NCBI GenBank assembly: GCA_900291925.1
Contig: UWYS01000001.1
Coordinates: forward strand, 620,001-684,000
DNA from: Thecaphora thlaspeos
Lineage: Eukaryota; Basidiomycota; Ustilaginomycetes; Urocystidales; Glomosporiaceae
Direction of reading: 5' to 3'
Length of the DNA: 64,000 nt
Part shown: piece by piece, positions 7,422 through 62,892 of the stretch
How positions within the stretch are numbered: the first letter of the stretch is position 1
How the letters are laid out: each line of letters begins with the position of its first letter
Made by a program: the position numbers and the translations under genes
Notes under the pieces: generated by a model
What the model was told of the DNA's origin: nothing
The model's database searches: none
Seen by the model: the letters and a program-made list of their open reading frames with translations, nothing else

Positions 7422-9521
7422 GCTGGTCGGCTGGTCGATGCGGGGCGAAAGGGGGAGAGCGGAAGGGTGACAACGGATAGGGCGGGCTGAGGAGCGGTGG
7501 TGTTGGAGACGTCTGGTGGTGGAAGAGTCGAGCGGATAGGTCGTAGGACGGAGTGGTGTGGACCAAGATAGGAGGCGGAAAGCCGCCACAGATGTGCCGC
7601 ACACCGAGACTCTTCGCTGTTGGAGATCGACGGCATCGGCTCCGAAAGTCAGGCAATCGGTCCGATCGGTCCGATCGGGCTGCGGTCAGTCGCCGACTCG
7701 CCGTCGGAGCTGCTACCACCAAGCCTAGACCATCTAGGCCTAGACCACACGGGTGGAGGCCTTCCGGGACGCCGTCGGCATCCCAAGAGTATCTCAGAGA
7801 CCGAAGGCATGCTTGTGGGATTACTGGGGATTGTCTAATGTACAAATAGAGGGCCCTGGGCACCATCGTCGAGCTGGAATTGATCATCTTTGACCGTCTA
7901 CTTTCCACATTCCCCACCTTTCTGCTACTACAGCCAGACCAAGGCTAGACAAAGCTTGGCCAAGCCAGACCAAGCCACAAAGGATCGGAAGGAGATCGCC
8001 GATTACCCTAGAATGCCCCCCGGCAACCTGCCGAAACACATCTCCACGACGAACATAACGGACGGAAGGCCGCGGTCGTTCGCTGCGCTTACTTTCCCGC
8101 CTTGGCCGCCAGCCAGCCGAGGCAAGGAGGCCGGGGCGGGGGTTGCGCCTGCTGACGTGCTCCGCTGCCCACGAGCCAGGGTCTCTGGGCCCCAAAATGG
8201 GTTAGCTTAAATTTAGTTTGCTATACGGTCGTCATCCTAGCTTGCGATCAGGGCGCCCGCCATCGGCGCCGTGGTTGTCGGGAGCGGGCCGTCCTCACCG
8301 AGCCAGAGATGGAAGGTACGCCAGCCAAGCTCAAGCGCAGGCTCATAGGGCTAACTAGTTATCTGTACTCTCGCGGAAGTGGTAGCGGTAGCGGGCTAGG
8401 CTGGGCTGCGGGACCAGCGAGATGATCGGTGGTCGATGTTGCCGCCGCCGTACGAGATGATGAATCGCCCTGACTCTCTTCGTCGTCAAGCAGGCGAGAA
8501 CACGCCAGCCTGCTAGCTTCCTCGTCTCGTCGGCAACGATGTGCTGCCAACGAGGCCAGTCGAGCAGGCAGCAAGATGCCCGGTAGTCAGCACTCCATCG
8601 CCAAGCCAAAAGAGATCGACCTGCTAAGACTACACAGTGTAGTACTAGCCTGCACTGGGAGGCCTCGATCAATGGAAAGAGCTTGGACCACTGGCAAACA
8701 TGCAGAGAAAGGAGGGCCAAAGGTATGAGGACAAGAGGGCGGTCGGGTCGTCCCTCAGACCACTGTGCGAGCAGGCCGCACATACGCCACAGCTGCGGCG
8801 ACTGCGGCAAAGGCGCATCAACGACGCATCAATGCCGGAGCTGGTCCAGCAGCCGGTGCAGAGGTAGTGTAGAGCGCGTGTGCCTCTATCTTGCATCTCG
8901 ATGCTGGTCCATCAGCGAGGATGATGTCGTCAGGCGGTTCGCCAGGCACTGTGGAGTGTAGAGCGGCTACGGCCGTGCCGTTATGGCTGCCGTAGAGAAA
9001 AAGGGTTCCGTCTTTTTGCCTAGGACCTTGGACCTTGATGTGGCGAAGGTTTCCTTCCGACATCGCCTTCCCTCACCTCGCTTCCACGTCCTCGTCGACG
9101 AGGTAGACGGCACACGACGCTACGCAGCGCACAGCCACAGCGGACGCTCTCTTCAACAATGCTTCAGCTCTCCAGGCAATCAAACACCCTCGCCGTCTCC
9201 TCGCCGAGCAGCATACAGAGATTTATCGCCGACGACCTGGTCGACCTTGCTCCTCTTCTTCCCTCGCTCCTCCTCTTTTTCTTCCCCTTCCCCTTCCCCT
9301 TCCCCTACCTCTTCCTATCCGCCCTCTTCTCCACCGTCCAACTATATGTGGTCGCGAAACGCCCCAGGCTCCCGAGACCACTGCAGAGGCGGACCCATCG
9401 GCAAAGATGCACGACCTGCTCTTATGACCCTGTTCCTGTAATCGCATCGACCAGCCTGCAGACTCCCTGTCTAGCCCTCGGGACAGCCATAACCCATCAA
9501 TAAGAAGCAGCTAGAGCGAAC
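7422..9521. other. Divergent intergenic region upstream of arrestin and lipase genes
   Basis: No gene supported. It contains a tandem CGATCGGTC motif (about 7650-7675), a 12-bp palindrome TCTAGGCCTAGA at 7733-7744, CCAAGCC-type repeats at 7930-7980, and a pyrimidine tract of CCCCTT units at about 9276-9312, which is probably in the lipase promoter or 5' UTR. Confidence 0.45.
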
Positions 9522-12500
9522 ATGATGGCAGAGGAGGCAGCATCCAGGGCAATGGGTGGCGGCTCTGAAGACGGCAGCGCCCCCTCGCCAGACGACACTT
9601 TCCGACTCCAAGATACAGCCGCTCAGTTAGCCTCGCCCCAAGAGCTGTCTCTTCATCACAGCGGTCCTCGCGATCATAACGGCTCTCGCGAGAGCAATGA
9701 CAGACAGCTCCCCGATCCATCTCATCTACCGCCACTCGACCTTGACGAACTCTCGCCCCTTCCGTCGCCGCTTCCTCTGGCCCAGCGCACCGCTCTCTCA
9801 CCGGACAACGCGCTTATCGAGCCGTCTCCTCGCCTCGCTCATGGGTTCCACCCATCAATGGGCTCACTGAGGTCCTCACCGATGCTATCGCCGTTCCGAC
9901 TCGACGACTCGCCGCGAAGGAGACCGACGTTGTCCTCGGAGAGCCCTCAGCCTCGTGAGCCGCGCTCTGAGCTCAGCGCAAGGGGCAGCCTCGACGATGC
10001 ACATGGGCTTCGAGAGATCGGTGCCAACGCCATACAGGCTGCGAGATACGTCACAGTCTCGGCAATCCTCTCGCGCTCAGAAGTCTACTTCTCTGCCGGA
10101 TCCCAGCATGCAGACATGTTGCGAGGCAAATTTGGCGAAGATGATCGAGCCATCCCGTCGCTCCCACGCCGATCCAGCGCAGGGCAAGCAGGTCCTGGGC
10201 CGTCGTTGTACGGCGTCCGATGGCGAGGATCTCGGAAAGCGCCAAGCAACGGCAGCGCGATAGAGGCGCTCGGTGCTCTCCTGCTCCACCGAGACAGCTC
10301 CGGAAGGGTCTCGGGTCTGAGCATGACCAGGGAGGAGGGCGGCGGACCGAAGGCGCCGCCGAATAAGCGGACCGTCGCGCAGACCTGGACGCAGGCCCTC
10401 AACGAAATCAGCAAGCTCGGACCCGCTCTCCCGCTGTCCGCCTCGTCCTGCGATGGTAACGGTGGTGCAGGCATTATCGGGCAGGGCACGATCGCGGAGA
10501 GAAGAGCCCGGAAGTGGAGCAACCTATTGCTGCGCCAGACGGATGCCACTGCCTTGGACAGCGAGCGGGAGGAAGTAGGCTTCAGGAAGATCTGGAGCTC
10601 TCGCGGAGGCCTGAGCTTCGAGGTCGGCATCTCTGCGGGTTCACGGCCGCTAGCAGCCCCCGCCGTTCGCCAAAACTCTGCCGCCGCGGGCGAATTCGCG
10701 CAGAGATCCGATCAGCGTCTGCCGGGTACGATCCTGCTGAGAGCTGGGAAGAAGCCGCATTTTGGAGACACGGCATCCTCCGAGTACGGCCTCGGCTCTT
10801 CGTTCAACCTGGAAAGCCTGCCCGAAGCCCCGCCGAGCCCGGTCGACATGCCTGGAGCGTGGCACGGAGGCTCGGCCTGGCGGGCCAAGCCGGGAGAGGG
10901 GTTCGAAGATGGAGCGCTGCTGCTACCGCCGCCGCTGCTGGACGACCAGGGCAGCAATCGGCACAGCTTCGAAGGTGAGTTCCGCTTGCGGGCTACTCAG
11001 GATTGGTCAGGTTCACCAAGACGGCTGATCGAGGATGCGCCGCTCTTCATGTATATCCCTTGGCTCCTCTCTTGCGCCCTTCCCTTCGCAGGCCTACTCG
11101 GCGTTCGACGTATGCGCGAACAGGCGAAAGCGAGGAAGCAAATGGAGCGGCTCAAGGCGCGCAACAGACCTACGCACAAAGTCGGGCCCTTCACCGCTCT
11201 TCTAAACTTTGTCAGGGCCGCCCACGCCGCAGAGAGCTCCAAACAGCCGCAGAAGGCTGGAAGCAGGCCCGATACCCTGTGGAGAAGCGTCTCGCTCCCT
11301 GGATCATCACGCCGAGCCGAGACGTCAGACGGGAAGGAGGTGCGTCAGCCTCTGTGGAGGACCCAGACGGTCACTCTGCGTAGCTCCACCACCGCCGGAG
11401 CGCTGGCAGGATCGGGCTGCGATGAGAAGCTCCTGACTGAAGAGCGCGAGACGGCGGACATCGTCCAGCACGCTGCGGATGCATCCGCGATCGTGGCCAA
11501 CCTTCCAGGTGAGCCCTTCGCCCTCTTCGAAGGCACCATCAAGCCCTCTTCGACGATGGCCTCTCCGAGACTGCAAGCGGCGCGGCGACGACAGTCCAGC
11601 CTGTCGAGGCGGGAGCCGCTGACGAGCTCTGTCGATGCGACCGGAAGGCAGCTCAACACGGTCTTCGAGACGGAGGCCCTCGATCCCGCCGCCCACATTC
11701 CCGAGTCGCGCGTCACGTCGCCCGACCTCGCCTACGTGAGCTCTCCGTTCTTGCGGCCTTCATCGCGCGCCTCGACGACGTCCCTTGGCCACGATCTCCC
11801 CTCGGCGCCGAGGCTGCTGCCGATCCAGATGTCGCTGCCACCATCGCCCTTCACGCCGCTCGGCATCGACCATCGTCCGCAGACCACTATGGAGCGGCGC
11901 TCCAACAGCAGCAGCAGCAGCCTAGCCTCCGACTATTGGTCAGCAAGGCCGCTGAACCACGCTTCGCACGGCCCTCAGACCCCACGGTTAGGCCCCACCA
12001 TCCTCAGCGTCCCGCCTTCGCCGTGGACGCCGCATCAGGGCAGCGCTCCGGTCATGTATCAGCTGCACTTCAACACCAGCAGCACGTCTTCCCTCAGGGT
12101 CCCGGGCACACCTCGGCTGATACCAACTCACCTGGAGGTGCTACCATCGCCCTTTCCGACGCCGGCAGCCTCTCGACGGGGCTCGATCAGCGTCGACAAA
12201 GGTTTTGCTGTCGTGTCGAGCTCTGCTCTGCCCTTGAATCAGACCCACGCCTCTTCGCCACAGAGCAGAGCCCAGGGAGAGACGACGACCTCATCTCTGT
12301 CCAGCGATTCCATTCAGTCTTCAGAGATCGGGGCCAGGGAGTCCACGCCGGTCCTGGCTGTTACTCGTGACTCAAGCCGGGTCCGCATGCTGAGGGCCTG
12401 TCAGCTTGCCCTAGAGCACGACGGCTCACGGCTGACCCCATCTACCTTGCTCCGGGACTTTTCGGATTCGGGCTCATCGACTCCAACAGTTGCAAAAGTC

Positions 12501-14864
12501 GAGGAGCAGCTATCGCAGGCTCGGCAAGGCGAGCCGCATAACCGCCTGGCTCCGTCTCGAGCATCCGCATCCCAGCTCCAGGCTACGCTCGCCGACGATG
12601 CAAGCGGGGGTCATTCGTTCCTGATCTGGTTCCTTGTTGGCGATCTCGGGCTGAGGAAGGGTGATTCTGTCGTGACTTCCCAGCAGGACGAGGTTGGCGG
12701 CTTGGCCGGGCTCTTGCTCGATGCCGCGAGCTTCGTCGTGTTCTGCCTGGCGCACCTGGTTGACCTGAGCTACCAGGTGGCAGAGCAGGCGGGTCTTGCC
12801 TTCTGGTTCGCCCGATGGCTCTACCTCAACGTCACGGGGCAGACGGTCCTGTCAAAGTGCGTGCTCGAAGCCTACCGCCTGATACAGGCCGAGTGGGCGA
12901 CAGTTGTCGAGGAGGACCACGAAGCTCGCGGGTCGAGGCGACGAGACGACATCGACGGCGAGGTCAAGGCGCGCGGCCTCAGCCGCTGGCAGGTGGCCAG
13001 GGGTCTCTTTGAGCTCTTTTGCCTCCAGAGCGTCACGCGAGTGCGATACCATCGCGAGGGAGCCGGGTTGCTCAAGCTCGAGGGATAATTGAAGCACTAG
13101 TCTCGACTCGACACACCGGACGCCAACCATACTCCCAGCTCCGGCCGGCTCGACATTGGCGCTCAGAAGGCTGCGGCGCGAGCAGCGATCGCAGAAGCCT
13201 CTCGGACCGCACCGTGTTCGACAAACAATGGCAGGCTCTCCGACGACGATGAAAATTGCGACCCTGACGATGATGGCTCCTACTGCGATGACGAAGACGA
13301 CGACGATGACAGCAGCGATGACGAAATGATCATCACCAATCGCGGCCACGACATTCTCGAATTCTCCAAGACTCCGCGGCTCGATCTCGTCAGGCCCTCG
13401 CAGCAGCGCAAGCCGAGTGGCTACTTTGCCACCTCGTACGAGGCTGCCACCACCTCGCCCGCGTTCCGGTCGTCGGCGAGCGACGTCGCCAGCGAATTCA
13501 AGGCGCTGCGCGAAAGCCCGCGCGAGCTGGTCAAGACCATCAAGTGGGCCAGCCGGCTGGCCATTTCGGCCTACGGCCTTCACGTGCACATCGTCGACCT
13601 GCCGCCGACCTTTACGCCTTCGGGCAACCGCTTCTCGAGACAGACGTTTGAATGTCGGCGTACAGCACGTCCTCGGCGTCGAGGCGCGACAGGTAGGCAG
13701 ACGCTCGACGTCGAGGCCAATTACAGCCCCACGTTCTACATCGTGCGCGACTACGTGCGCAAGGTGGTCTGCGTGGCCGTGAGGGGAACGCAAAGCTTCT
13801 CGGACATCATCGTCGACCTCGAGATGCAGACCGAGGAGGTGGAACTGCCACAGGTGCAACCTTCGCCAGGCGAAGAGTTCCGCTGCCACGCCGGCATCTG
13901 GCGAGCTGCCCGAGCGCTTGTCTCGCCAGACTCGAAGCTGTTCGAGAAGTTCCGGATCGCCCTTGAGGAGAACGACAACTTTGGCATCGTCTTCTGCGGG
14001 CACTCGCTGGGCGGCTCGATCTCGAGCGCGGCGGCGCTGCTGCTGGGAGAGTACCGCGTGCCGGACAGCGTCGATCGGGACCAGGGCAGCTGGTTCACCA
14101 ACATGTCAAGTGGCCTGTCGGCCCACCGACCGATACGCACCATCAGCTTTGCCAGCCCCGTCACCATGACGGCTGACCTGGCGAGCCGGGCGGCGATGGG
14201 CTCGATCCCGCTGGTGACGAGCGTGGTGCTGGGCAGCGACGTCATCCCCCGTGCGGGCCACGGACAGGCGCGCGAGATCCGGCGGGTGCTGGGTGCGCTC
14301 TCGCGTGTCCGGCGTAGGCTGGCAGTCTCTTCGTCATCCGACAAGGAGGATGCCAGGGTGCACATTGTGCGAGGCTGGTGGGACTGGAGGTCGATCACGC
14401 AGATGGCGAAGCCGGACGACGTGATGCTGCACTGCAAGGAGCGGATCGAGGAGCAGCTGTGGTCTCTGCGGCGAGAGGTTGAGTCGGAGCTGTACGCGGC
14501 GGTCAAGTTCCGGCACGATGCGGCGGACGAGGGAGAGGACCAGGGCGAGGGCGAGGAGGGTGGGGTCGCGGGACGCCTGCGGATGCCGCCCTGGCCGTGG
14601 GTGGGACCGCAGCAGAGGGCGGCGGCGCCACTGCACCAGCTGGCGGCCAGGCGGCAGGCTCTCGATTCGGCCACGCTGCGGAGCGAGGCGGCCCAGGGCG
14701 GACCGCTGATCCCACCGGGCAAGTGCCTGTGGATCGAGGGCCGCGACGTCTACCTGATCACGAGCCCGCTGTCGTTCTTCAGCCTGCCAGAGTTCCGGGT
14801 GGACATGTTTGCGATGCACTTCCCCGCCGCCTACGAAGAGGCCATCCTCAACCTGCGCAGGTGA
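9522..14864 (+). CDS. Large class-3 lipase, sn1-diacylglycerol-lipase type, with N-terminal extension
   Basis: Probable membrane-associated lipase acting on diacylglycerol-like lipids. Start is ATG ATG at 9522. Two open stretches, 9522-13088 and 13101-14864, lie in the same frame, separated only by TAA and TAG; a 60-nt in-phase intron at 13041-13100 (GTGCGA...CACTAG) joins them into about 1,760 residues. Residues 1-1170 are mostly Ser/Pro-rich with a hydrophobic segment near 508-528 and two more near 1061-1107. An acidic run of D/E follows (about 1225-1248), then the alpha/beta-hydrolase core: AVRGTQSFSD (about 1400), nucleophile elbow GHSLGG with Ser1475, LGSDVIPR with likely Asp near 1553, and MHFPAAYEEAI with likely catalytic His near 1746, as in DAGL enzymes. 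The stretch 13642-13701, before AVRGTQ, appears inverted (see findings). Family confident; intron and N-terminal role inferred. Confidence 0.83.
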
Positions 14865-15268
14865 AGTGGCGGTGGCGGCAAGCTGGCTGAACGGTTCCTC
14901 GTGGGAAGCCGTACAGTGGTGTCCTGTACGACAAGAATAGGGCGATGAATATGCGTCGATCAAGAAGTGGAAATAAAGCAGGTCAGCACCACTCAGATAC
15001 AGATGATCCACGCCGGCGGCGAGCGACGGCGATGGGGAGCAGAGCCGCTCCTCGCGTGCGTGCGCTCAAGTATGGAGGCGGCGCCTGCTTTTGTGGAGGG
15101 CCGCGCGAGCCGAGCTCCACTTGGGCGATTTCACGAGCGGCGGCGGCGGCTGTCTGGTTGAATGCCCCGTGCTCATCTCAAGAGTGCGACGCATTCCCTC
15201 GTCTGCTCCTTCTTCCCTCTTCTCCTAACCACCACCCTCTCGACCCCATCCTTCACGCCTTTATCACC
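14865..15268. other. Intergenic region
   Basis: Short gap between two genes on the same strand. A pyrimidine-rich stretch at about 15200-15265 immediately precedes the next ATG. No gene seen. Confidence 0.5.
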
Positions 15269-16543
15269 ATGGACCTCGTCACCGACTTCTGCCACCTGAT
15301 CGGCGTGCCCGCCCCATCGCACGAGAAGCTGACGCTCGCCCTGACGACGGCAATTGTCGTGCTCACCGTTCCCTTCCTCTTCCTCTTTCACTTCCGCTCT
15401 CGACCGCGATGTCAGAACATCCCAATGTACAAGGAACGCGTTCTGATCCTCGGAACGTCCAACGACCGCTCGGTCGGCGAGGCCCTGGCGCTCCAGTACG
15501 CCGGTCGAGGATGTCGCGACTTGGTCCTTGTCGCCCGCAGCCAGGAGGGGCTCGATAGGGTCAAGGAAAAGTGCCTCGCCGAGATGGCAAAGACCGAGGA
15601 GTGGAACGAGAGCAACGAGGCGCCCGGCGACGAGACGAAACAGGGCGCAGCACGCATCCATACCTTCCAAGCCGACTGTACCGATCCGCACGATGTCGAT
15701 CGCCTGCGCAAGTACGTCCTGGCCAATTTCAAGGGCCTCGACACGTTGCACATATGCTTTGGCGTATCGGCGCTCTTGCCTCTCCTCGGCGTCGCAGGCG
15801 TCGACCCAATCCGACCCTCGATCGCAGCGGGAGGTGCTGCAAAGAGCATGACGGTCCATCCGGATGAAGCAGGGCTGCGAGCCGTGTCGGAAGCCATCTC
15901 GAAAGCCTCCCACGTCAATGTTACGGGTACGGCCGTCTGTCTGGCCGCCTTTGCCCCGATGCTGCAGACCACCTCAAGCTTCCCCGCGATAGCGCTCACC
16001 TCTTCCGCCGCAGCACTGATCCCGGCCCCCACCCGCTCCATCTATGCCGGCACCAAGGCTGGCCAGCTCTCCCTCTTCCGCTCGTTTGCCATCGAATGTC
16101 AGGCCCACGCCCAGCCCTCCGTCCCGGTACAGGGAGACAGCGGAAAAGAGAGGCGCAAGATCAACTTTCTCGCCGTCTGTCCCGGAACGATCGCGAGCTC
16201 GTTTAGACACTCGGCCATCGACCTCCCCGCATCTCAGGGCGGGGAAAAGGAGATGCCACAGGACCTGGCGTGGGTCAAGGGCGAGAAGATGCTGAGCCCA
16301 CAAGACGTGGCCGCAACGACTATCTTCAAGGTCGACAGGTACGCAAACGGCACCGTAACCCTACCGGCACTGTACGAGGCTGCGACGTGGATCGAGAAAA
16401 TCTAGTGAGTGCCATCATTTCCCCTCCCATCGGCGGTGACCTGTGGACGGCTGACCGAGCCCTTCAAAATCCCCCTTTGGCAATGATCCTGCGACAGCCC
16501 GGCGTACGTCCAACGCCTTGCGAGGAAGAAGTACGCCTACTAA
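15269..16543 (+). CDS. Membrane-anchored short-chain dehydrogenase/reductase
   Basis: NAD(P)-dependent oxidoreductase of the classical SDR fold, probably on the ER or lipid-droplet membrane. Exons 15269-16404 and 16498-16543 give 393 residues. The first exon would stop at TAG, but GTGAGT overlaps that codon and splicing to GCGACAG adds the tail YPAYVQRLARKKYAY, which is typical of this SDR group. One transmembrane segment lies at about residues 21-42. The cofactor loop is an unusual GTSNDRSVG in place of TGxxxGIG, near residues 61-69. The active site is Ser in LTSSAAAL (about 245) and Y259-AGT-K263. The start is the first in-frame ATG before the transmembrane helix; an in-frame upstream extension is Arg-rich and not protein-like. 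Substrate cannot be told; the DHRS7/hydroxysteroid branch is a reasonable comparison. Confidence 0.9.
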
Positions 16544-20166: not shown

Positions 20167-23100
20167 TCAGTAGGGACGAGCGGCATCATAAGCCTGGTGG
20201 TGATGGTGGTGGTGTTGGTAAACGGGGTATGCTGCGTAGGCGGAAGTGGATCGATCTAGGAGGTGGCCGTACGTTGCTGGGCCGGAGACGAGTCTGTCGC
20301 CCTGCTGCCGGTGAGCATTGCCGGCCTTGACAGAGGAAGAAGCGTCGTTGCCATTGCCACTATCACCGCCGCCGCCACCACCGTCCGAGTAGAAGCTGTG
20401 TGCGTCTCCGCCGTTGCCGTGGGCCGCCATCCGGTGCGGCGCGGGAATGGGACCGCTTTCCGGTGACCCGACCGAGCTGGCCTGGGCCCACGGGTTGAAG
20501 GCATCCGACGTCGGCGATCGAAGGACAGCGTTGGACTGAAAGCTCTGCGACCGCCGTCCATCCGTGCCGCCGTTGCGCTCGACGAAGTCCGCAACACCGC
20601 AATCGGTCATGCCAGTGTACAACGGCGGACGTGTCGGCTTGGCACCCTGAGAGGCCGTCCTGGACCCGCGCGATCCCAGCTGCGGCTGGTGGTGGAAGGA
20701 TCCCTGCAGCAATGCTTGGGCCATCGCCTGGTTCAGTTCCCTCATGCCGTCCGGCTGGTAGAGGGCGCCAGCGCCGGCGGCGGCCCCTCCGTCTGCTGTT
20801 AGCTGCGAATTAGACCGAGGAAGCGGTGGCATCGCGCCGTAGGATATCGGTGACATCGCGGAAGGAAGCGCACCTGTAGGCGCAAACTTGCCGGCCACCG
20901 GTGGCGGTGGCGGTGGAGCTGCAGCGAGGCCGAGATTCTCCACCAGAGGTCGGTAGGGCGGCGCATCCAGAAGCCTGTGCTGAATCAGCAGCTCGGAGAC
21001 GCGGCCGGCGCAGATGCTTTGCATCTGGACGTCGAGCGCGTTCGAAGTTAGCAGCCGAAAGACGAACTGTGAGCCATGAAGCTGGTGCGTGACGACGTCC
21101 TCGAGGATCTGTGGCTGTGAGGGGTCGAGCAGCGCAAGCAGGACCTGCCGCGAGGCTTCGGGGTCGACACTCTGGGTGATGATGCGCAGCAGGGTGAGCG
21201 ACGCCAACTTGTGGGTGCAGAGGTGGACGAGGTGCGGCGTGAACCTTGGGACCAGCAACCTGAAGCGGCCGGGGAGGCTCGCCGAATCCAGCAGCCAGGT
21301 GACCAGCAGCGCTCCGTTCTGGCTCGTCGCGAGCGGGACCGAGTGGAGGACGATAGCAGCAGCGACGCGCTTCCGCTGCAGCTTGGAGGCTTGCGACGAC
21401 TCAAGCACCGCTCGCATGCTCCGCGCACCGAAACGGCCCTGCGCCACCTCCCAGCAACGGTCGATCATGGCGTCAAAGATGAAGTCGGCGTGCGGCGACC
21501 CAAACGGTATCACCTTTTGCACCACGTAGTTGCCGTACTGGTCGGTCAAAAGGGGCGGCACGAAGGGCCTCAGGTGCACCGCGATGATGGCGCGCTGCTC
21601 GTCGGTGGTGGCGCAGTCGATGATCTTCTGCGCCGCCCAGGTCCCGTTCTTGTGGACGCCGATCTTGGCGAGGTGCGGAGCGATGCTCTCGAGCATCGAG
21701 ACCTTGAGAGCGTCGCTGCACTTGTCGAAGAACTTCTGCACCAGCGTGTTGCCGATGAAGTCGCTCGAGAGATCGACGATGTCCGGCAGGTGGTCGCGCG
21801 CGATCTGGTCGATGTCGCCTTGCGTGCAGCTGTTCGCCTCGATACTCTTACGCAGCTCCCTGAGCTTGGTGGTGTCGAACTTGCGGCTATTGGAGTTCTC
21901 GGCCACCGGCGGGATCTTGGAGTAGTACGTCGCGAGTTCTCTGCACTTTGACACTGATTCAACGTGCTCCGATACCTCCGGGTCGTGCTCGTCGAGGTGT
22001 CGGATAATCAGCTGCCAGTCTGTGATAGTGGGCTGGGGCTTCATCTCTGCTGGCAGCGGCACGCCACCCTTGTCGCTGCTGGGAACGATGCTGTTCGAGG
22101 AGCTATGCGTAGGGAAAGAGCCAAAGCGGCCGACGATCGGGTTGGAGGCGGACTTGTGCAGCGAAGCCTGCGCGGTTGCCGTTGCGTTTGCCGTTACCGG
22201 TGCCTGTGCCAGGACTGTCACTGGTCCTGGCGCCGGGCTGCCGGCCTGTAGCGTTCTCTGCTTCTCCAGCAGGTCAAGGACGAGGTTGCTGCGGTAGTCT
22301 TCGATGTTGCCATTCGCCAGCTGCTTCTCAACGGGGACGGCCGAGCCGCCCTGCAGGTTGGCGAGGGCCTCAACGGCGGCGTGGAAGTCGGGGCTTGATG
22401 CTTCTCCCGGGTATCCGTTGCCGTCCTGGCCCTTGGAGGGGGCCTTGGCGAAACCGATCCTGACCCCGCCCACCTTAGCACCAAGGACGTCGCGTCCGTG
22501 CAGCGCCTTGCGAGCCCGCACAGCATCGTCGACCCTCTCAAAGTTGATGAAGCCGCAATTTTTGCTGGCCAGCACGCGCACGCTCTCGACCGGGCCAAAA
22601 GGCGTGAAGATATCGAGGAGCGCGGTTAGCTGGGTGGCCGCCGGGATCGATCCGATCCAGAGAGCGCGGGTAGACTGCTCGTTGCCACTCTCCGCCGGAG
22701 GGCCAAACAGCCCGTCTCCCGCCGGATGGTCTAGCCTCGGCGAGGGGACGCCGCGGCTCATCGCGCCGCCCGCGTTGGCAGCGAGCGTCTGCTGCGACCC
22801 TTGCGGGATGGCGTCAACCTTGCCGAAGCCGATTCGGATCGCGCCGTCCGCCGACGTCGTCTTGAGGCCGATCTTGCCGCCGAGCCGAGTCATGATGTCG
22901 TCCTTGGCGCCGATCGCGTCCTGCATGTCGACAAAGTTGATGAAGCCACACTCCTTCTCGGGTAGAAGTCTTAGCGTATCGATCGCACCGTAAGGCGCAA
23001 AGGCCTGCATCAGCTCCTGACCGGTGGCCGAGGAGCTGAGCTGCCCAATGTAGAGGCACCGGCTGGGCGGATGGCCGACCTGTCCATTGCTGGGCGTGCC

Positions 23101-24483
23101 GGGTGGAATTGGAGATGTCGCAGTCGCGTTGCCGTGCCGCTGGCCGGGCGCCGGCACGCTATCGACGGCGACCGATGCGTCGAGGTAGCTGCTAAGGCCC
23201 AGAGGTCTCACGTTACGATTCTGGCTGGCGTTGGGCGACAGGGACATCCGCGTCAGCTCCTGCTCCGTCCTCTGACACCCGCCCGGCCCGCTGAGGGCGA
23301 CCACGGTGCCAGCGCGATGCCGGCCGGCGAGGGATGCCATCGGCTGCGGCGCGGGGCCGCTCGAGAAGGAGGCGCGCAGGGCCTTGTTCTGGGCAAACGT
23401 GACGAACGCGTTGGGATCGATGTTTTGCTCTATCGCATAGCTGCGAATAGCCTCCTCGTCGATCCCGAAGGACAGCGTCGATGGGGTCAGCGTGGAGAGT
23501 TTAGAGGTCGGCGAGACGGGGCCATCGAGCCCGCCCATGCTCGTCGCCCTCGGCCTGGCTCCGTCGCCCGCCGAAAGGCCATGTGCGGGGGCGAAGCCTG
23601 CAGAGAGGCTGTTGCCGCCATACTGGCCGCCGAGGCGGCCGCGTGGCGCCGAAGGGGGGCATGACGCCTGCGTTGTCGGGAGCCCGGCCTCGCTCGAGTC
23701 AATTTGCTCGTCGCGCTCAGAAACGTGCTCGAAGTTGAAGCCTGGTAAGAAGGTGCTGCTTCGCGCACGACCGCCCATTTCACCAATGCGCGGCCGCGTA
23801 ACCGACGACGCCAGCGTCGATGCCCTGTTGCGGAGATTGGCGCTGCCGGCAGCGGCTTCTTGCCGGCGCGGATGGCCGTCGGCCAAGCCGAGGTAGTCAA
23901 GCGTGCTCGACTCGTCAAAAGTGTCCCTGCTTGCATATTCGTCGTCGGGGCCGTCGAGGTGCGAGTCATGCTCGGCGCTGGCGGTGTTGTCTGCGGCCAT
24001 GGCGAGGCTGCTGAGGCCGGATCGCGAAGGGTGCCAGCTGGAGAATATCGAGGGGCCAAAGGCGTTCGCGAAGCCGTCGTCAGCGAGGGAGAGAGAGATG
24101 GGGCGGATGCGATTGCTGGTCTGAGGGCCGTCGACGAAGAGAGAGCTGTCGGTAAAGGCCACCGGCTGGTGCAAGGCGTGTCGGCTTTGAGGATATGGCG
24201 GGAGGCTCGAAAGGAGGCCGGAGTGCGAATTGAGATTTGTGCTGCTGGCCTCTGCCGCTGTAGAGATGGGCACCGTGGTCAGAGAGGGCGTGGTCGAAAG
24301 GTTGCCCCAGCTGGAGGGCAAGGTGCCCGCTCGGGCCCTCCCGCGGCTGGCTCGCGCGCTGTCAAAGGCTATCAAGGCGCCGACATCTCGGTTGTCTGGT
24401 ATTTGAACGCGGCCCATCTGCGCAGGTGGTAGGATCCCCTCGTCGGCTTGAATCTGGCGAGCCCTATTTTTCGGCGCAAGCAT
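20167..24483 (-). CDS. RRM + Pumilio (PUF) RNA-binding protein, Jsn1/Puf1-Puf2 type
   Basis: Post-transcriptional regulator expected to bind mRNA 3' UTRs. One exon, 1,438 residues from the ATG at 24483; the open frame extends 8 codons further without another ATG. Order: disordered N-terminus with NRIRPISLSL and a Ser/Pro-rich region; RRM1 about 474-550 (RCLYIGQLS, RNP1-like ECGFINFVD); RRM2 about 604-680 (RALWIGSIP, KNCGFINFE); PUF array about 853-1185 with repeats such as FIGNTLVQKFFDKC, NGTWAAQKIID and YGNYVVQKVI. Several C-terminal repeats have degenerate RNA-contact triplets, as in yeast Jsn1/Puf2. The tail contains a proline run, TGALPSAMSPISYG and a final HQHHHHHHQ tract. The RRM-PUF combination is the diagnostic feature. 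An overlapping upstream ORF precedes the start. Confidence 0.93.
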   Translation of the reverse strand: MLAPKNRARQIQADEGILPPAQMGRVQIPDNRDVGALIAFDSARASRGRARAGTLPSSWGNLSTTPSLTTVPISTAAEASSTNLNSHSGLLSSLPPYPQSRHALHQPVAFTDSSLFVDGPQTSNRIRPISLSLADDGFANAFGPSIFSSWHPSRSGLSSLAMAADNTASAEHDSHLDGPDDEYASRDTFDESSTLDYLGLADGHPRRQEAAAGSANLRNRASTLASSVTRPRIGEMGGRARSSTFLPGFNFEHVSERDEQIDSSEAGLPTTQASCPPSAPRGRLGGQYGGNSLSAGFAPAHGLSAGDGARPRATSMGGLDGPVSPTSKLSTLTPSTLSFGIDEEAIRSYAIEQNIDPNAFVTFAQNKALRASFSSGPAPQPMASLAGRHRAGTVVALSGPGGCQRTEQELTRMSLSPNASQNRNVRPLGLSSYLDASVAVDSVPAPGQRHGNATATSPIPPGTPSNGQVGHPPSRCLYIGQLSSSATGQELMQAFAPYGAIDTLRLLPEKECGFINFVDMQDAIGAKDDIMTRLGGKIGLKTTSADGAIRIGFGKVDAIPQGSQQTLAANAGGAMSRGVPSPRLDHPAGDGLFGPPAESGNEQSTRALWIGSIPAATQLTALLDIFTPFGPVESVRVLASKNCGFINFERVDDAVRARKALHGRDVLGAKVGGVRIGFAKAPSKGQDGNGYPGEASSPDFHAAVEALANLQGGSAVPVEKQLANGNIEDYRSNLVLDLLEKQRTLQAGSPAPGPVTVLAQAPVTANATATAQASLHKSASNPIVGRFGSFPTHSSSNSIVPSSDKGGVPLPAEMKPQPTITDWQLIIRHLDEHDPEVSEHVESVSKCRELATYYSKIPPVAENSNSRKFDTTKLRELRKSIEANSCTQGDIDQIARDHLPDIVDLSSDFIGNTLVQKFFDKCSDALKVSMLESIAPHLAKIGVHKNGTWAAQKIIDCATTDEQRAIIAVHLRPFVPPLLTDQYGNYVVQKVIPFGSPHADFIFDAMIDRCWEVAQGRFGARSMRAVLESSQASKLQRKRVAAAIVLHSVPLATSQNGALLVTWLLDSASLPGRFRLLVPRFTPHLVHLCTHKLASLTLLRIITQSVDPEASRQVLLALLDPSQPQILEDVVTHQLHGSQFVFRLLTSNALDVQMQSICAGRVSELLIQHRLLDAPPYRPLVENLGLAAAPPPPPPVAGKFAPTGALPSAMSPISYGAMPPLPRSNSQLTADGGAAAGAGALYQPDGMRELNQAMAQALLQGSFHHQPQLGSRGSRTASQGAKPTRPPLYTGMTDCGVADFVERNGGTDGRRSQSFQSNAVLRSPTSDAFNPWAQASSVGSPESGPIPAPHRMAAHGNGGDAHSFYSDGGGGGGDSGNGNDASSSVKAGNAHRQQGDRLVSGPATYGHLLDRSTSAYAAYPVYQHHHHHHQAYDAARPY

Positions 24484-24524
24484 TGCACCGGGGACAAAGA
24501 GCAACACAGAAGGCTTCGATACAT
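24372..24524 (-). promoter_or_regulatory. Overlapping upstream ORF before the PUF start codon
   Basis: An ATG at 24524 opens a 50-codon reading (start MYRSLLCCSLSPVQ) in another frame that ends at 24372, inside the PUF coding region. If both are on one transcript it would reduce initiation at 24483. A 5' intron that removes it is possible, so the call is tentative. Confidence 0.4.
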
Positions 24525-25607
24525 GGTAAGTCCCTTGTCCTCCCGCTTTCTCTTTGTGCCACTAGCCCGACTCTAGATCTGTTGCTTACCGCCGGGAGAG
24601 AATGAGGGGAGTCGATCTCGGGAAAGTGCCTGACCCCTGTGCGCCATCAGGCGAAAGCAGCGTTGACGGCAAGTAGCCTGGTGGGGGCAGAGGTGACAAA
24701 GGATCAAGGCGCAGGATAAGAATAAAGCCCACGTCGGAAGCCAGAGGGACTGCGCAGGCGCAACCTAGCTTGGCAACAGCCGCTGGTGCGCGAAAATTGA
24801 GCGCCCACGCCGCCCTGCCCTACACACTAGAGTGTACGTCAGAGTTGCTCACCTTCATCCTGACCTTGACCGCTCATGGCTTGCTGGTGGCGTGCTGTTC
24901 GACGCCCGCCTAGCGTCCGCTCGTCGTCTCGGGGGGGCGGTCCGGTCTGCTTGAGGGGCAGGGAGTGGCCAGACGTCTGTCGGAGGCTTTTCGGATAGAC
25001 CGCGGTGCCACTGGTCTGTCGCTGAGCGGCAGCTTTCCGCTTGTCCTCCCCGATTCTGCCTTGTCGCTGCACTGCCTACTACACTCTTCTCCCGGCTTCT
25101 CTCGTGACAGATCAGGTGCGGAGAGACGCTGGCCGATCCGAACAATGCATAGTCTGCACGGCGTTTGTTTCTGGAAAAAAGGTCGCCGGTGAGGCAGTGC
25201 GTGGTGCGAGGCAGGTGGGGCGGTCAGGTCGAGCGTAGCACCGGAGCAGGAGGGCGGTCAGCAAGATGCTGTGGAGAGCTGGCGGTGAGCACGGTCCTGC
25301 TGCGAGCTAGCGACGCGGCTAAGTTGTGGCTTTTCTAGACTTCAGAGGTACGTGCTGGCGGCGACGATGGCGCTGCGGTATATCGGATGCGGGTGTTAGC
25401 GTCACTAGCGATGTCAGTTATGGTTTAGCCTTCGGAGGTGCGAAACCTTGATCTTGGTGGTGTGCGAAGCAAGTGCGCCGATCGACTTGCTGGCGGAGAG
25501 GGAGGCTAAAGGGCAGGGACGCTGCGTCTCAGGGGCTGCGAGTGTTGGCGGAAGGCTGTGATGGGAGCCGCCTAGCGTTGGCTACAAGTAGCAGGGCGAT
25601 TAGCAAG

Positions 25608-28271: not shown

Positions 28272-31200
28272 ATGCAAGTCCCCGCAGCGGTGCTTGATTG
28301 GACTACCGAGATGGACTGGCCTCCTCAATCTCCTCGAACGATGCCCTCCGAGTCGTCGCCAGACTCGACGACAGCCAACAGCCTGACGCCTCCTACTTCG
28401 GCCGGCTCAGGTCGGCCATCGCGCGAGGCCAGCGAGCCGACAGAGGTCTTTCTGAATGGGAAGCGGATTTCCGGACCCGTCTTTCTCAACGGTACCACCA
28501 CTTCTGGCGTCAGCAGGCCTCGTCGCCAACACACCGGCGGCGCCGCTGCTGCGGACGTACCACCGACGATCGCTGAGGCGGTCACCGGTCCGGGCGCGGC
28601 TCAAGTCGTAAACATCCGAAGCGATGGCGAACCGCGCTCACGGGCCCCACAGCAGCAGCTCCTGGAAGCACCGCCATACCACGTCGGTACACCGCGACGC
28701 TCCGGCGGGAGGCACTGGCCCGAGTCTGAGCAGGATTTGCAGCTCAGAAGCAAGTTTAGCATGTCGCCGGCCGGCAAGGGCAAGTCACGGGTCAGAGACC
28801 GGAGGATCGGCCCCTCGAGTCCCAAGCGGCACGAGGACGTCGGCATTGCGCCGAAGCGCAGCTTCTCGTCTTTCGGCTTTGCCTGGGGCGCTCGAGCCCG
28901 GAGGGAGAAGCTCCTGCAGAAGCTCGACCTCGACCCTCCGACCGGCGCAACGCTCTCGGTGGACCCGGGACGACACCGGGCCACCGACCTCGACGGTCAA
29001 TCGCTCAAGTCTCACAGCGGCGCATCGGCCCTTCGAAGGTTCCTGTAAGTTGCACCCTGCCTTTTTTAGCTGATGTCAGGCTCTCCGAACACGGAGACGG
29101 CTGACCCTCCTATGGTGCCCCATCTCCTAAGCAGAACGCCTTCGAGGATGCGGATGAGGTCCGCCAAGTTCGACGCGGCGTTCGACGGCGGCGGCCTTGC
29201 TCGCGGGCCGCCAGCCCCATCGTCTCCACGGTCCAGCCTCGCTGGACGTCCTGGAGTGCGAGCGGGCGCCCCGTCCACCTGGTCGGGCATGCCAAACATG
29301 GCCGGACCTCGGCCGGACGACGCTACCGCAGGCTTGATCGCGCGCGCGACGGCTATGAAGAAGATCGGTCCAGAGGTTAACCCCACGGATTGGCGGGCCA
29401 AGCTCCGCAGACGTACAGAGTCGAGACCGCCCGTCGAAACGTTGGGAGACCGCAAAGGGAAAGCCCCGACGGCGGCGGCCGAGAGCAGAACCTCGTCGCC
29501 CGTCAGCTTCAAGGGTCAAGCGGCTGTTCCGCCCTCGCCGTATCGACAGCGGGGAGCCGCAACGTCGTATAGCAGGTCGCGCCCCAAGCAATCGACAGCT
29601 CAGCGAGCTCGAAAACAGATGTCGCCGACTCCCATCATCTCTCTCGACCCTCCGCGCGAAGCCTCAATCGAGCTACTTGACCAGCCGACCCGGACCCTAC
29701 TCAGCGGCGACACGCAAGCCCGGCTGCTGGAGAGGGCCGTACAGCTGTGTCTAGAGAACCCCGGCGCGGCTCATGGATCTGGTCAGTGCAGCTCGGCGGA
29801 CGGGCTGTTCACGAAGCTTGCGGCGCCCGTATCGGAAGCCATCGGCCGCCGTCAGGAAAGAGGAGCAAGCCCGCCTGCTCATACTTTCATGCCGCTGGCG
29901 AAGGCATCTCAACGCGATGATCGCCGTGACAGGCCGGATGTCGAGCTCCTTCGAGAGAAAAGCAGAGGGCCCGTCCGCGCCCCCCGCTCCTCGGCCATCA
30001 TCGATGCTCCGCCGCCCACACTTAGCAGATCGTTCAGAACCAAGCTGAAGGAGCTCCGCTTGCTGTCCAGGCCGTTGTACGGGCCTGCTGTGTTGCCCTC
30101 GGCCCGTTCACATGCCACCGCCAGCAACACGCCGACTGCCTTGAAGGCAAAGGAAGCGGCGAGCACCGACGATAACGCGAAGTGGTGGACTTCGCTAACG
30201 GTCAAGAACAGGAAGAGCGTCGGCGACCTCCGGGTCACTTCTCATCCGCGAGGAGCCGGCATCGAGGATGAGGTTGAAATGAAGGGAGACTTTGCTCCGG
30301 ACTCGTTGCCGAGCTCGGACAGTAAGTCGCAACGTCGGGGCGGACGAAGGCTGGTGCGAGGGAGACGAAGCGAGGACTTGCTGGCGCGGACATCTCCTAA
30401 GCTCGCCACCGAGAACATCGCCGCCCAAAGGAGCAAGAGCATAGACCTCAGTGAGTCTGGTCGGCTGTTCCAGTTTCACAAGGGAGAAGAATAGACCAGC
30501 TCACGCTCGTCTGCCCATTCTCCTCTCTTCCCTTCAGTCCGAAGCTCGGAGACGTCCAAGGTGGTCCCCATCCGTCCGTTTGGGGGGGTCAAAAAGCGTC
30601 CGCCCATACCGCACCTTTGCGTACATGAGGCCACCCCGTCCCGCGAAACGCACGAATGCTCGGCGTCAATTCCGTCGCCGGCCATCATCAAGACCCCATC
30701 GCCAGCGTCACAGAGGAGCAAAGCGAGATTCATGAACGCGAGAAGGCATCCCTGGCTTCGTCAGCTCGTGCTCCAACCAGCCCCTGCTGCTCTGCCGCCC
30801 AGACACAAACACACGCTGAGCTCGACAGGCTCCACCTCGTCCTACCAGACCATCGATGAGGAGGAGGTGCAGGAGGAGGCGGGAGGAGAAGGCATCCTAA
30901 GGGCCCATCAGTTCGCTACACCGCCCACCCAGACAAAGCGATCGCCGCGTAGAAGTGCGAAGCTGCCGCCGCCATCGACCTTTTCGAGGCCTCCGCACAA
31001 CAAGTCGCTGCCCATCCCTCCCCGGCCCACGCGAAGCAGGGCGAGCACGATCAGCTCCCAGGACGCCTCTCCGTCGGAACCTTCGGGAGGCAAAATTGTC
31101 GGTGTCGGTGGGCGCTTCGGCCACGCACACGGCACTGAAGACGTCCGTTCTTCGAGCTACAGCGTCGCGACGGTCGCCACGTCGATACTGTACCAGGACC

Positions 31201-32699
31201 AGCCCCAACTAGCGCCCTTACAGCCGCAGACGCCACGAAAGGGCAAGGCAGCCGCACGAGACTCCAATGTGACGAGCAGCGGCAGCGGCGGCGGCTCGAG
31301 CGCTCGCGCTTCGCCGTACCGTTCTGCCGCCCGAGCCGTTGCGCGGAACTCGCCACGAACGTCGCGTCCGAGGCGAGGCCCGGTCCTCGCTCGACCCCCG
31401 AGCGCAGCGCTTCCTCGGCCGCCTTTCGGTGCATCTGATCTAGGCAGGTACCGCGGCATCTCAAACCATGGTGTATCTCCCAGGAAGTTGATCGGTCGCG
31501 TCCAGGGGAACCGCCTCGCTCACAACGTGGCGTCCTGGACAGAGCTTCCCGACCGATCGAAGCAGCAGGGGCAGGAGGTTGATAAGGCGACCGCGACCGG
31601 CATAGGCAAGACTGACGAAGCCACCGAGACTCTATCGCAGCTCGTTGAAAGCTTCGATGAGAGCCTAACGCCCTTGACAATGACGCCGAGCTCCATGGCC
31701 GGCAGCCCGATGCGAACGATCGGCTCGTACCGTCGGCAGAGATGGACGTCGATGGATTGCAACAGCATCTCGGATCAGGCGTTTGACTCTATTCGCGAGG
31801 TCGAGGGCGGTGGCGGAGGAGGACGAAGCGTCTGGCAGCGCTCAAGGTTCAATAGCGGCGCCAGGTCTAGCATCGCGCTCAGCACGGTGCTGAGCTACGC
31901 CTCGACCGAGGCCAACTCGAGCTTCGGAGACGGCGAAGAGCTTCAAGAGCTGATCGAAGGGATCATGGCGGGCGGCGATGCCGGCCCCGATGCGGTCGCG
32001 GGCGGCGTCGCTCAGCGTGCGCCGCCATCGCCTCAGAGATCGCCTTCGCTTCCGACAACGCTGTGTTGGCCCGAGGCGACCAGTGGAGGGACCAGACACG
32101 ATGAGGACGAATCGCGCGAGACCTCGCCGGGCAAGCACCGTCGAAGTAAGACGGACTCGAGCGTACCGAGCCACGTACAGAGCCCCTCGGCAAAGCCGCA
32201 TCGCAAACAGGAGGTATCAGATTTCACCACATCCGTCCCTAAGCCAGCTCTCGAGGTGGCGAAAGGCGTATCGGACACGCGAAAAGCAACCCTCGAGGTA
32301 ACACCGCCGGCGACACAGGACGGGCCCATCTTCGACAGGCCCATGAGAAGTCTACGCGATCCATATCCCGCCTTTACGTTCAAGGATCTGCCGTCAAGAG
32401 GCCTGTTGGAGGCGTTTGGCCTGCCTCCTCGACCGCAGGACCCGCGCAGTCAGCGGCCGAACGCCGCCGAGACGGGCGCAGGAAGACCCCCGCCTCCCCG
32501 ATTCTTGCTCAACGATGAGCCTGTCTTCGTCGTCGACACGCCCGACGCCTCTCCACAGCTCGTCAGCGGCGGCGCCGGCGACAAGACGAGCTTCAGCTTC
32601 CCTCGACCGAAGACGCAGAGCGGTCGACCGTCCGCCGCCGGTGTCGATGGCGAAGATCCGTTTGACGGCTTCGATCGCATAGCGACCAATCGGTGGTGA
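28272..32699 (+). CDS. Large disordered protein of unknown function
   Basis: Not recognised. Three exons, 28272-29044, 29135-30450 and 30538-32699, join in frame to about 1,416 residues. Intron 1 is 90 nt (GTAAGT...TAAGCAG), intron 2 is 87 nt (GTGAGT...CCCTTCAG); the three open stretches share one frame and the splices remove every stop. ATG at 28272 is the first in frame; a second at 28311 is possible. The protein is basic, rich in Ser, Pro, Arg and Ala, with no transmembrane segment and no known catalytic motif. More ordered-looking patches are RSFRTKLKELRLLSRPLYG (exon 2) and YPAFTFKDLPSRGLLEAFGL (near the C-terminus), which may be short binding motifs. Many SP/TP sites suggest proline-directed phosphorylation. 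It is probably a lineage-restricted regulatory or scaffold protein. Confidence 0.78.
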
Positions 32700-56300: not shown

Positions 56301-57300
56301 GCAACACTCGAATCCGCTGATGATCCGGCTCGTTTCGCCGCTCTTCAACCTGGCCCGGGACGAGGAGGCGGACGAGAAGCAGCTGTCGAACCGAGCGGGC
56401 GGCATCCTGCGAGCCCGCCTCTGCAAGGCCAAGGAGGTCCCGGAAAGCGTCGCGGCCGCCGATTTCGCCGAGGAGCTCGAGGAGATGCACACTATTGTCC
56501 GCTCCGTCTCCAAGGGCACCGTCACCGACCTCGCGTCGGCCGTCATCTTCTACCTCACCAAGGTCACGCTCGCCGGTCGCACCACCGTCTCGGCCATCGA
56601 GGACGCCGTCGTGCTCAAGGCGTACAAGAAGACGCTGGGCGACTTCCTGACCAGGCGCAAGTCGCACGTCAAGCCGACCTTCTTGACCGAGTCGTTCAAG
56701 CGCTTCCCGCAGCTGGGCTGGGCACTGCGCGAAGACGTCCTCGACAGCTGCCGACCTGGCGCGGTCGCCCATGCCTTCCGACAGCTGACGGCGATGCAGA
56801 TGCTGCAGGAGACGCTGACGCAGCTGGCCCAGACGAGCGAGAAGGACGAGATCCTCTCGTTCGTCCCGCAGATCAGTCACTGTGTCGGCGATATTATCGC
56901 TTCCGCCGCCACGGACGCCGAGACGCCGTACAACGCGAGCCGCCTCAAGGACACCATCAAGTTTGCCCTTCAAGTGGCGCGGCTGTCGCGCAGGCTGGCG
57001 CCGTCCGAAGACAAGCTGAGGGCCGCCTGGAAGCCGGCCAAGCTGCGCGAGTCGACCAACCAGCTGCAGACGTGCGACCGCTTCAAGGCCTCGGCGTCGA
57101 TCCACGCCCTCGTCAAGCAGCTGTTTGCCATCCTCGAGGGACCCGAGGCCAACAAGGCCGGCAAGGCGACGCCGTCGAAGGCAACTCCGTCCAAGAAGCG
57201 TCCCAACGCCCCCGACGAGGTTGCCAGCGCCGCGGCGGCGTTTCCCTCGGCCGGCTCGAAGCCCGGTTCGGCGAAAAAGGTCAAGGCCAAGCGGGCCTGA
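53333..57300 (+). CDS. POL5: DNA polymerase phi / Pol5 (MYBBP1A family), ribosome biogenesis
   Basis: Nucleolar HEAT-like protein needed for rDNA transcription and large-subunit assembly; despite its name the family is not thought to act as a replicative polymerase. Exons 53333-53674, 53784-56118 and 56234-57300, 1,247 residues. Splices are GTAAGC...GCCACAG and GTGAGT...CCGACAG; without the second, the protein would end about 20 codons later. Family landmarks: FWQLASAQKQDRLASS at the start, ELAYALKRLIRGLASPRENSRLGFAVAL, and FKNKVLDILEVYARKQHSNPL after the acidic region. The acidic stretch, about residues 760-880, is a run of D/E/S typical of nucleolar proteins. The C-terminus is Lys-rich (KKVKAKRA). 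Length fits fungal Pol5. Confidence 0.93.
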
Positions 57301-61684: not shown

Positions 61685-62892
61685 AAGATGGCGGGCGCTC
61701 CCCGAGACGTCGAAAGAACGCCTTCCGCATCCCAGGTCGTCTGCCGACTTCTGTAGCCGTAGCATCGCACCAAACCATCATCCACCTCTTCCAAGTCCCA
61801 CCCACATGACACCCACTCCGAGCGACGTCCAGCAGCCCGCAACCCGATTCCACTGGTCGAATCCGGGCCACGAGCAGAGCGACGAGCATCGCTGATGTGA
61901 GGCCGACGGACGTTTTCCGTCCAGAGACGCCGCCTATCCGCACGCCGCGGAGCACAGCATATTGCTTCCTTCCACGTCCACCAACATCCAACCAAGGCGA
62001 CCGAGCCGCCATAAATTCCAGGCTCGAGCCTCAATACCATCAAGTCGATCGGTGCAGGTCCGGTACGGCTCTGTTCACTCTTCTCGCTCTCCCCCTTCGG
62101 CCGACCTTTGCTAGGACCGTCGACTTCGCTCCAACCCCCCTTCCTCTTCGCCAGCTGCCCTCCTCGGCCATGGGTATGACGGCCCGAGATCATGGCGTCC
62201 CGCCTACATTCCGCCCCCTTTTTTTTTCTTTTTCGGTTCATCCTCTAATTCGTTTGTGTCCCACGAGACTCCGATTCCAGCACCGAAAAAAAGCATTTTC
62301 AGTCACCGTGAAACCCTTCTACTCACCCTCCGACCGCCTTAATCCTGTGAATCACTACCGGCCCTACCCATTCCCATCGCCTTCTATTACACTCTTTTTG
62401 TTGCCTGAGAAGACATACGGTCGTTTCATCCAAGAGCCCCCAGATCCGAATGACTGATTGACCTGACGATGAGACGAGGGCAGTAGCCGCCGGCCGCCAA
62501 CGCGATCCTACCCGCACGTGCTGACGGAGACGCGATGGACAAGAGAACGGCAGAGACGAGCCGCGAGAGAGGGACGGACGAGAGGGAGAGGCGAGAGGGA
62601 AGGGGCGCTGTCGGTCGCCCCTCTTGCGGAGGACGTGCACTCGCGCGGCAAGGGGAGTGGGCGCCTGCTTCCCTGACACACCTCCACCCTTGCTTGTTTG
62701 TCGCAGTAAAAATCTGGCCATCGAGCTGCTTCTCGACCAGACACATCACCTTCTGCTCCCATCAAGGAAGCTCGACGCGCACTTCTCCCCCTCTCTGCCA
62801 TAGGCTGCACCATCACTTCCAAGACTGGCGTCACTGCATCGCCCGGTCACTCCACACGAGCATCTGCACCCACGTTCTCGACACGCGCAAGC
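61685..62892. other. Intergenic region
   Basis: Lies between the kinase and COA1, both on the plus strand. A T10 run lies at 62219-62228. No gene seen. Confidence 0.5.

What the first reader, a model, noticed from the sequence alone, without database searches (positions are those of the whole stretch)
13642..13701. 60-bp micro-inversion inside the lipase core
Seen: the sense codons 13641-13703 read as an Arg-rich string (CRRTARPRRRGATGR) with only 9 of 21 codons ending in G/C, against 11 of 14 just before and 19 of 20 just after. The reverse complement of 13642-13701 reads AYLSRLDAEDVLYADIQT with 16 of 20 codons ending in G/C, and in context fits the segment that precedes the PTFYIVRDY...AVRGTQ strand of DAGL-type lipases. 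No stop is introduced and the flanking frame is kept. Inference: the segment was inverted in place, by template switching or similar, or is an assembly artefact. Either way the lid-side segment of the enzyme is altered.
Basis: partly seen in the sequence, partly recalled or inferred. Interest (0 to 1): 0.75.

Follow-up and report, generated by a model that had tools for sequence, protein, structure and literature searches.

The report
Flipped 49-bp block in fungal lipase
In one smut-related fungus a 49-base stretch of a conserved lipase gene lies back to front, replacing a nearly unchanging 16-residue part of the enzyme; it is a clear example of a known kind of small mutation and probably means that this copy of the gene no longer works.

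Summary
The gene is a DAGL-type class 3 lipase of an unnamed fungus close to Pseudozyma flocculosa (78% identical over the searched part). At 13650-13698 the sense strand reads ECRRTARPRRRGATGR, which matches 0-1 of 16 residues in 79 aligned homologues. The reverse complement reads AYLSRLDAEDVLYADI and matches 9-15 of 16, best 15 in P. flocculosa. tblastn finds the antisense match unprompted. The flipped block is 49 bp (51 if the outer T/A pair is counted), not 60. An imperfect 5-bp inverted repeat abuts both ends, as in human/chimpanzee microinversions (PMC8755829). All 79 aligned homologues have the other orientation, so the flip is derived. In models the block is helix plus strand in an orthologue and low-confidence here. 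The gene also has two in-frame stops (13086, 13098), removable only by unproven introns. Most likely a real replication or repair microinversion in a recently disabled gene; an assembly error cannot be excluded without reads. New member of a known kind.

The parts
13650..13698 (-). inverted block (49 bp; 13649-13699 equally possible); antisense frame reads AYLSRLDAEDVLYADI
   Evidence: 15 of 16 to P. flocculosa P0017 and 9-15 of 16 to 79 aligned homologues, sense 0-1 of 16; tblastn antisense HSP 13710-13645; translation of the 60-bp reverse complement
13645..13649 (+). left arm of flanking inverted repeat, CGTTT
   Evidence: pairs with AGACG at 13699-13703: four Watson-Crick pairs and one G.T; 274 of 63,600 window positions with the same spacing do as well
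13699..13703 (+). right arm of flanking inverted repeat, AGACG
13704..13715 (+). CTCGACGTCGAG, 12-bp palindrome just right of the breakpoint; a 13-of-14 near copy of its surroundings, CTCGGCGTCGAGGC, lies inside the block at 13672-13685
   Evidence: repeats D1 and I1; palindrome read from the sequence
9522..14864 (+). DAGL-type class 3 lipase gene: start codon as listed by the ORF tool; matched to P. flocculosa PFL1_00544 from 9882 to 14861
   Evidence: single tblastn HSP in one frame, 1102/1700 identities, two in-frame stops; Lipase_3 PF01764 E 2.7e-16
10975..11091 (+). likely canonical 117-nt intron (GTGAGT..CGCAG) of the lipase gene
   Evidence: 39 extra residues against P0017 at this place; splice sites read by eye
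13086..13088 (+). in-frame TAA where most aligned homologues have a Trp (P0017 LEAWSKH)
13098..13100 (+). in-frame TAG, a codon extra relative to P0017
13041..13100 (+). only a candidate: 60-nt phase-0 GT..AG interval (GTGCGA..CACTAG) that would remove both stops; one of 8 frame-keeping GT..AG intervals that would
   Evidence: enumeration; no CTRAY branch site found in it, though by eye it holds an ATAAT one base off that motif

Best explanation
A 49-bp segment of the lipase gene was reverse-complemented in place in this lineage, probably after it split from the P. flocculosa lineage. Shown: block, edges, derived orientation, collinear flanks, abutting short inverted repeat. Inferred: the event happened during replication or break repair, when a polymerase paused near the palindrome-rich right flank, switched to the opposite strand at the CGTTT/AGACG repeat, copied about 50 nt backwards and switched back (template switching, or the microhomology-mediated break-induced replication proposed in PMC8755829). 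49 bp are replaced by 49 bp, so the frame survives, but 16 near-invariant residues become an Arg-rich string with no counterpart among the 79 aligned homologues. The enzyme is therefore very probably inactive. Two stops upstream fit a gene being lost. Conserved sites elsewhere in the protein are no more changed than in a control gene, so the damage is probably recent.
For: Antisense 15 of 16 to the nearest orthologue and 9-15 of 16 to the 79 aligned, sense 0-1 of 16. Unprompted antisense tblastn HSP, 18 of 22, E 1e-4. Best chance match elsewhere in the gene 9. Codon bias switches strand at the same edges, 5 of 16 against 15 of 16. Flanks match at once: 59 of 70 residues from 13437-13649 and 239 of 267 from 13699-14500. 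All 79 aligned homologues have the other orientation, so polarity is clear. Flanking 5-bp inverted repeat, found at 274 of 63,600 positions with this spacing. One DNA match in the 20.6-Mb assembly; next-best protein match 38% identical over part. Models: helix 129-136 and strand 144-147, bins of pLDDT 76-77, in P0002; the same region in bins of 30-34 here. Window-only changes at conserved sites 13 of 350 in the lipase against 10 of 290 in a control gene (Fisher p 1.0).
Against: No raw reads and no second isolate, so an assembly error is not excluded. No nucleotide sequence of a sister species was at hand, so the edges rest on protein and on the genetic code. The flanking repeat is short and imperfect, and the mechanism is inferred only. 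Loss of activity is inferred from conservation and models; both models have a mean pLDDT of only 66-67, and a low score is expected anyway where a residue string has no homologues in the alignment. The lipase has 13 window-only against 2 P. flocculosa-only changes at conserved sites, which could mean longer relaxed selection; the control gene shows 10 against 5 (Fisher p 0.39). One control gene is a thin base for 'recent'.
Confidence: 0.8

Rival explanations
1. Assembly or library artefact: a chimeric or fold-back read, or a gap-filling error, put the block in backwards. The living strain has the ordinary orientation.
For: Only one assembly is held and no reads can be mapped. Two further lesions (stops) sit within 620 bp of the block.
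Against: An artefact would have to replace exactly 49 bp by 49 bp, with edges on a short inverted repeat. No second copy of the locus was found in the assembly. The scan of 264 kb is only weak evidence: several other high blocks lie in two window ORFs (56190-57323, 60901-61809) whose codon-position composition suggests a wrong frame, and none was tested by homology.
Confidence: 0.15
2. Functional innovation: the flipped allele is expressed, the two stops are spliced out as a new intron (for instance 13041-13100), and the Arg-rich segment has been kept because it works.
For: Frame kept through the flip. 8 frame-keeping GT..AG intervals would remove both stops, one of them 60 nt long on codon boundaries. 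Conserved sites outside the block are no more changed than in a control gene.
Against: The block is present in 79 of 79 aligned homologues, with one His unchanged in all. The donor GTGCGA differs from the GTGAGT read in another likely intron of this gene and in two other window genes, and no CTRAY branch site was found. Splicing there would remove 20 codons that align to homologues. The new segment is modelled with very low confidence.
Confidence: 0.04
3. Chance or ordinary insert: the antisense frame merely looks like coding sequence, or the Arg-rich segment is a lineage-specific insert or intron.
For: GC-rich antisense frames can look coding; other blocks in the scan score nearly as high, one higher.
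Against: Antisense identity is to the very columns missing from the sense frame, 15 of 16, with no length change. The best chance match elsewhere in the gene is 9. No GTR-donor frame-keeping intron fits the edges.
Confidence: 0.01

Closest known systems
Microinversions between human and chimpanzee (Potapova, Kondrashov and Mirkin 2022, PMC8755829; abstract, section 6 and first part of section 7 read)
   Same: In-place reverse complement; short, often imperfect inverted repeats next to the edges; derived in one lineage.
   Different: 49 bp against 17-33 nt there. In a fungus and inside a conserved protein-coding block, seen from protein rather than sister DNA.
Short-range template-switch mutations (PMC7954356, Walker et al. 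2021; start of abstract in a listing and five found passages seen). Its reference list also names yeast work: Tremblay-Belzile et al. 2020 on orientation-reversing switches in human and yeast, and Omer et al. 2017 on rad27 yeast (titles only seen)
   Same: Local orientation-reversing copying explains a cluster of apparent substitutions as one event; fungal precedent exists in yeast.
   Different: From recall, those models also cover partial and displaced copies; here the copied and the replaced stretch coincide.
sn-1-specific diacylglycerol lipase-type class 3 lipases of Ustilaginomycotina (nearest: P. flocculosa PFL1_00544, P0017, itself named 'uncharacterized')
   Same: Lipase_3 domain, GHSLGG motif, collinear from 9882 to 14861.
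   Different: FAYLSRLDAEDVLHADIQTL of P0017 is replaced by FECRRTARPRRRGATGRQTL; two in-frame stops upstream.

Membership tests
Microinversion (as in PMC8755829) | Segment equals the reverse complement of the orthologous segment, in place | tested here: met
   15 of 16 residues to P0017 on the antisense strand, 0-1 of 16 on the sense strand for 79 homologues; protein level only
Microinversion (as in PMC8755829) | Flanks collinear, no gain or loss of length | tested here: met
   One tblastn HSP without a gap at the block
Microinversion (as in PMC8755829) | Perfect or nearly perfect flanking inverted repeats of 3 nt or more next to the edges | tested here: met
   CGTTT/AGACG, four Watson-Crick pairs and one G.T; with strict pairing it is interrupted after the first base pair
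Microinversion (as in PMC8755829) | Length in the published range (17-33 nt) | tested here: not met
   49 (51) bp; that range is what one primate comparison found, not a definition
Microinversion (as in PMC8755829) | Identity shown by sister-species DNA and confirmed by reads | not testable with these tools
   No sister DNA or reads at hand; only protein P0017
Class 3 lipase, DAGL type | Lipase_3 domain above Pfam cut-off | tested here: met
   60.2 bits against 22
Class 3 lipase, DAGL type | Nucleophile elbow GHSLGG (role recalled) | tested here: met
   GHSLGG at residues 225-230 of the 13326-14861 translation; 225-229 invariant in A2
Class 3 lipase, DAGL type | Class 3 lipase fold | tested here: met
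   Model of orthologue P0002, not of the window protein, against PDB: Thermomyces lipase 6xok, E 8.4e-09, target TM 0.55
Class 3 lipase, DAGL type | Intact conserved core and open reading frame | tested here: not met
   Block replaced, two in-frame stops
Class 3 lipase, DAGL type | Hydrolase activity | not testable with these tools
   needs an enzyme assay

The most novel reading that the evidence does not exclude
The flipped allele is still a working gene: an in-place 49-bp inversion created a new 16-residue protein segment in one step inside a near-invariant enzyme core, and a stretch of exon holding two stops became an intron, so that selection kept an enzyme with changed properties.
Probability: 0.04. 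Interest if true: 0.8.

Novelty: new member of a known kind. Interest (0 to 1): 0.42.

Why it matters
A single reverse-complementing event is easily misread as a burst of substitutions or as a bad gene model. Here the ancestral block is so conserved that the event can be read from one genome, with edges to about one base, in a fungus. It gives a clean case for asking how often such flips occur in fungi, and shows that Arg-rich strings in gene models of GC-rich genomes can be checked on the opposite strand. If real, it also points to recent loss of a conserved lipid hydrolase in one lineage of smut relatives.

Tried and rejected
Intron removing the block: no GTR-donor interval fits the edges; GTTTGA..GGTAG at 13646-13696 keeps the frame but is a poor donor (read by eye). 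Second copy elsewhere in the genome: none found; one DNA match, six Lipase_3 places including this one, second-best protein match 38% identical over part. RNA families at 9000-15500: none at gathering score. Old pseudogene: not supported, since window-only changes at conserved sites are at control level. Ab initio search for more inversions: the focal block ranks 2nd of 130,890; the other 24 blocks printed were not tested by homology. Donor-strength scan: uninformative, since GTGAGT itself was not enriched, so it says nothing about GTGCGA. Literature on microinversions in fungal coding genes: no such case in the titles and abstract starts listed (20 of 38, 6 of 6, 7 of 7, 1 of 1 and 8 of 16 papers); these searches are narrow, and yeast template-switch studies are named in the references of PMC7954356. 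DAGL in fungi: no paper held all terms.

Rows dropped: of 97 homologues (14, 83; both searches scored only the 7,996 and 7,990 candidates sharing most words) 79 were aligned at the block. P0003, P0006 and P0009 were left out as fragments lacking it, P0011-P0015 and P0090-P0099 as distant. In the rate test, columns 14580-14635 were left out because 7 P0017-only changes cluster at 14586-14631, a likely local error of that protein; this also drops one window-only change (14592). With everything outside the block kept, the counts are 14 window-only and 9 P0017-only in 363 columns. The exclusion favours a window excess; I draw no decay claim from it.

Full report
Setting. The window is C1:620001-684000 of a 20.59-Mb, 32-contig genome. 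The gene at about 9522-14864 (+) aligns to Pseudozyma flocculosa PFL1_00544 (P0017) from 9882 to 14861 in one tblastn HSP in one frame, 1102 of 1700 identities. It carries a Lipase_3 domain, and several named homologues are labelled sn-1-specific diacylglycerol lipases by a source.

Check of the observation. In the alignment with 79 homologues (of 97 found; 18 fragments or distant ones left out), the 16 sense residues of 13650-13695 match 0 (61 homologues) or 1 (18 homologues) of 16. The antisense reading AYLSRLDAEDVLYADI matches 9 to 15 of 16, with 15 of 16 in the nearest relative. The one difference from P0017 is a Tyr where all 79 have His. tblastn with P0017 reports the antisense match by itself (18 of 22, E 1e-4). 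Among 1,621 stop-free reverse-complement blocks stepped along the gene, the best match to P0017 away from this locus is 9.

Edges. Codons CAG ACG TTT (13641-13649) and CAG ACG CTC (13698-13706) match homologues on the sense strand. The antisense codons run GCC...ATT plus one C, which leaves 13650-13698 as the flipped block. T13649 and A13699 pair, so 51 bp is equally possible. The block is bounded by CGTTT and AGACG, an imperfect 5-bp inverted repeat; 274 of 63,600 positions with the same spacing in the window have one as good. A 12-bp palindrome lies at 13704-13715, and a near copy of it inside the block.

Mechanism. Potapova et al. (PMC8755829; abstract, section 6 and the first part of section 7 read) report 59 human/chimpanzee microinversions of 17-33 nt, all with perfect or near-perfect flanking inverted repeats of 3 nt or more. 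They discuss template switching, doubt it for very short or imperfect repeats, and propose microhomology-mediated break-induced replication. The present case fits that picture but is longer. Which of the two routes acted cannot be told from sequence.

Consequence. In a model of orthologue P0002 the block is a helix (129-136) and a strand (144-147), with pLDDT 76-77 in the two ten-residue bins that hold it. In the window protein the same region is predicted as mostly coil, in bins of pLDDT 30-34, while the later core keeps much the same order of helices and strands. Mean pLDDT is 66-67 in both, so only the local contrast is used, and a string without homologues is expected to score low anyway. 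The block is present in 79 of 79 aligned homologues, Malassezia and Tilletia among them. I infer that the flipped protein does not work.

State of the gene. Two in-frame stops, TAA at 13086 and TAG at 13098, fall where homologues read on (LEAWSKHSRL in P0017). Two other same-frame ORF pairs in the window appear to be split by introns with GTGAGT donors (read by eye), and this gene has such an intron at 10975-11091. For the two stops, 8 frame-keeping GT..AG intervals of up to 140 nt exist. The 60-nt one at 13041-13100 falls on codon boundaries but has donor GTGCGA and no CTRAY branch site; it would also remove residues that align to homologues. Conserved sites outside the block show 13 window-only and 2 P. 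flocculosa-only changes in 350 columns, against 10 and 5 in 290 columns of a JSN1-like control gene; the two genes do not differ significantly (Fisher p 0.39 for the split, 1.0 for the window rate). The gene was therefore probably under normal constraint until recently, and the lesions are young, or they are errors of the assembly.

Verdict. A sharply defined in-place inversion in the assembled sequence (about 0.98). Biological rather than artefact about 0.84. It is a new member of a known kind. The added points are the coding context, the larger size and the reading of the edges from protein alone.

Noticed in passing
window 13086-13088 and 13098-13100: Two in-frame stops in a conserved exon of the lipase gene; 8 frame-keeping GT..AG intervals, one of 60 nt at 13041-13100, would remove both. 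Either recent gene loss or a candidate for exon sequence turned intron.
   Followed up: partly
window 41902-44868 (-): Cdc25-like phosphatase gene (Rhodanese domain PF00581 found; the Cdc25 name is my recall from the residues), apparently split by an intron with GTGAGT donor.
   Followed up: partly
window 29070-32699 (+): Long ORF pair without Pfam match, in one frame, split by a single TAG inside what looks like a GTGAGT intron.
   Followed up: partly
window 20170-24561 (-) and 53736-56186 (+): JSN1-like pumilio/RRM protein gene (used as control) and DNA polymerase phi family gene.
   Followed up: partly
P0017, part aligned to window 14586-14631: The P. flocculosa protein departs from 18 otherwise identical relatives at 7 sites over a short run, which looks like a local frame or annotation error in that record.
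   Followed up: no
L016, minus strand near 2002: Only block scoring above the focal one in the ab initio antisense codon scan; not tested by homology.
   Followed up: no
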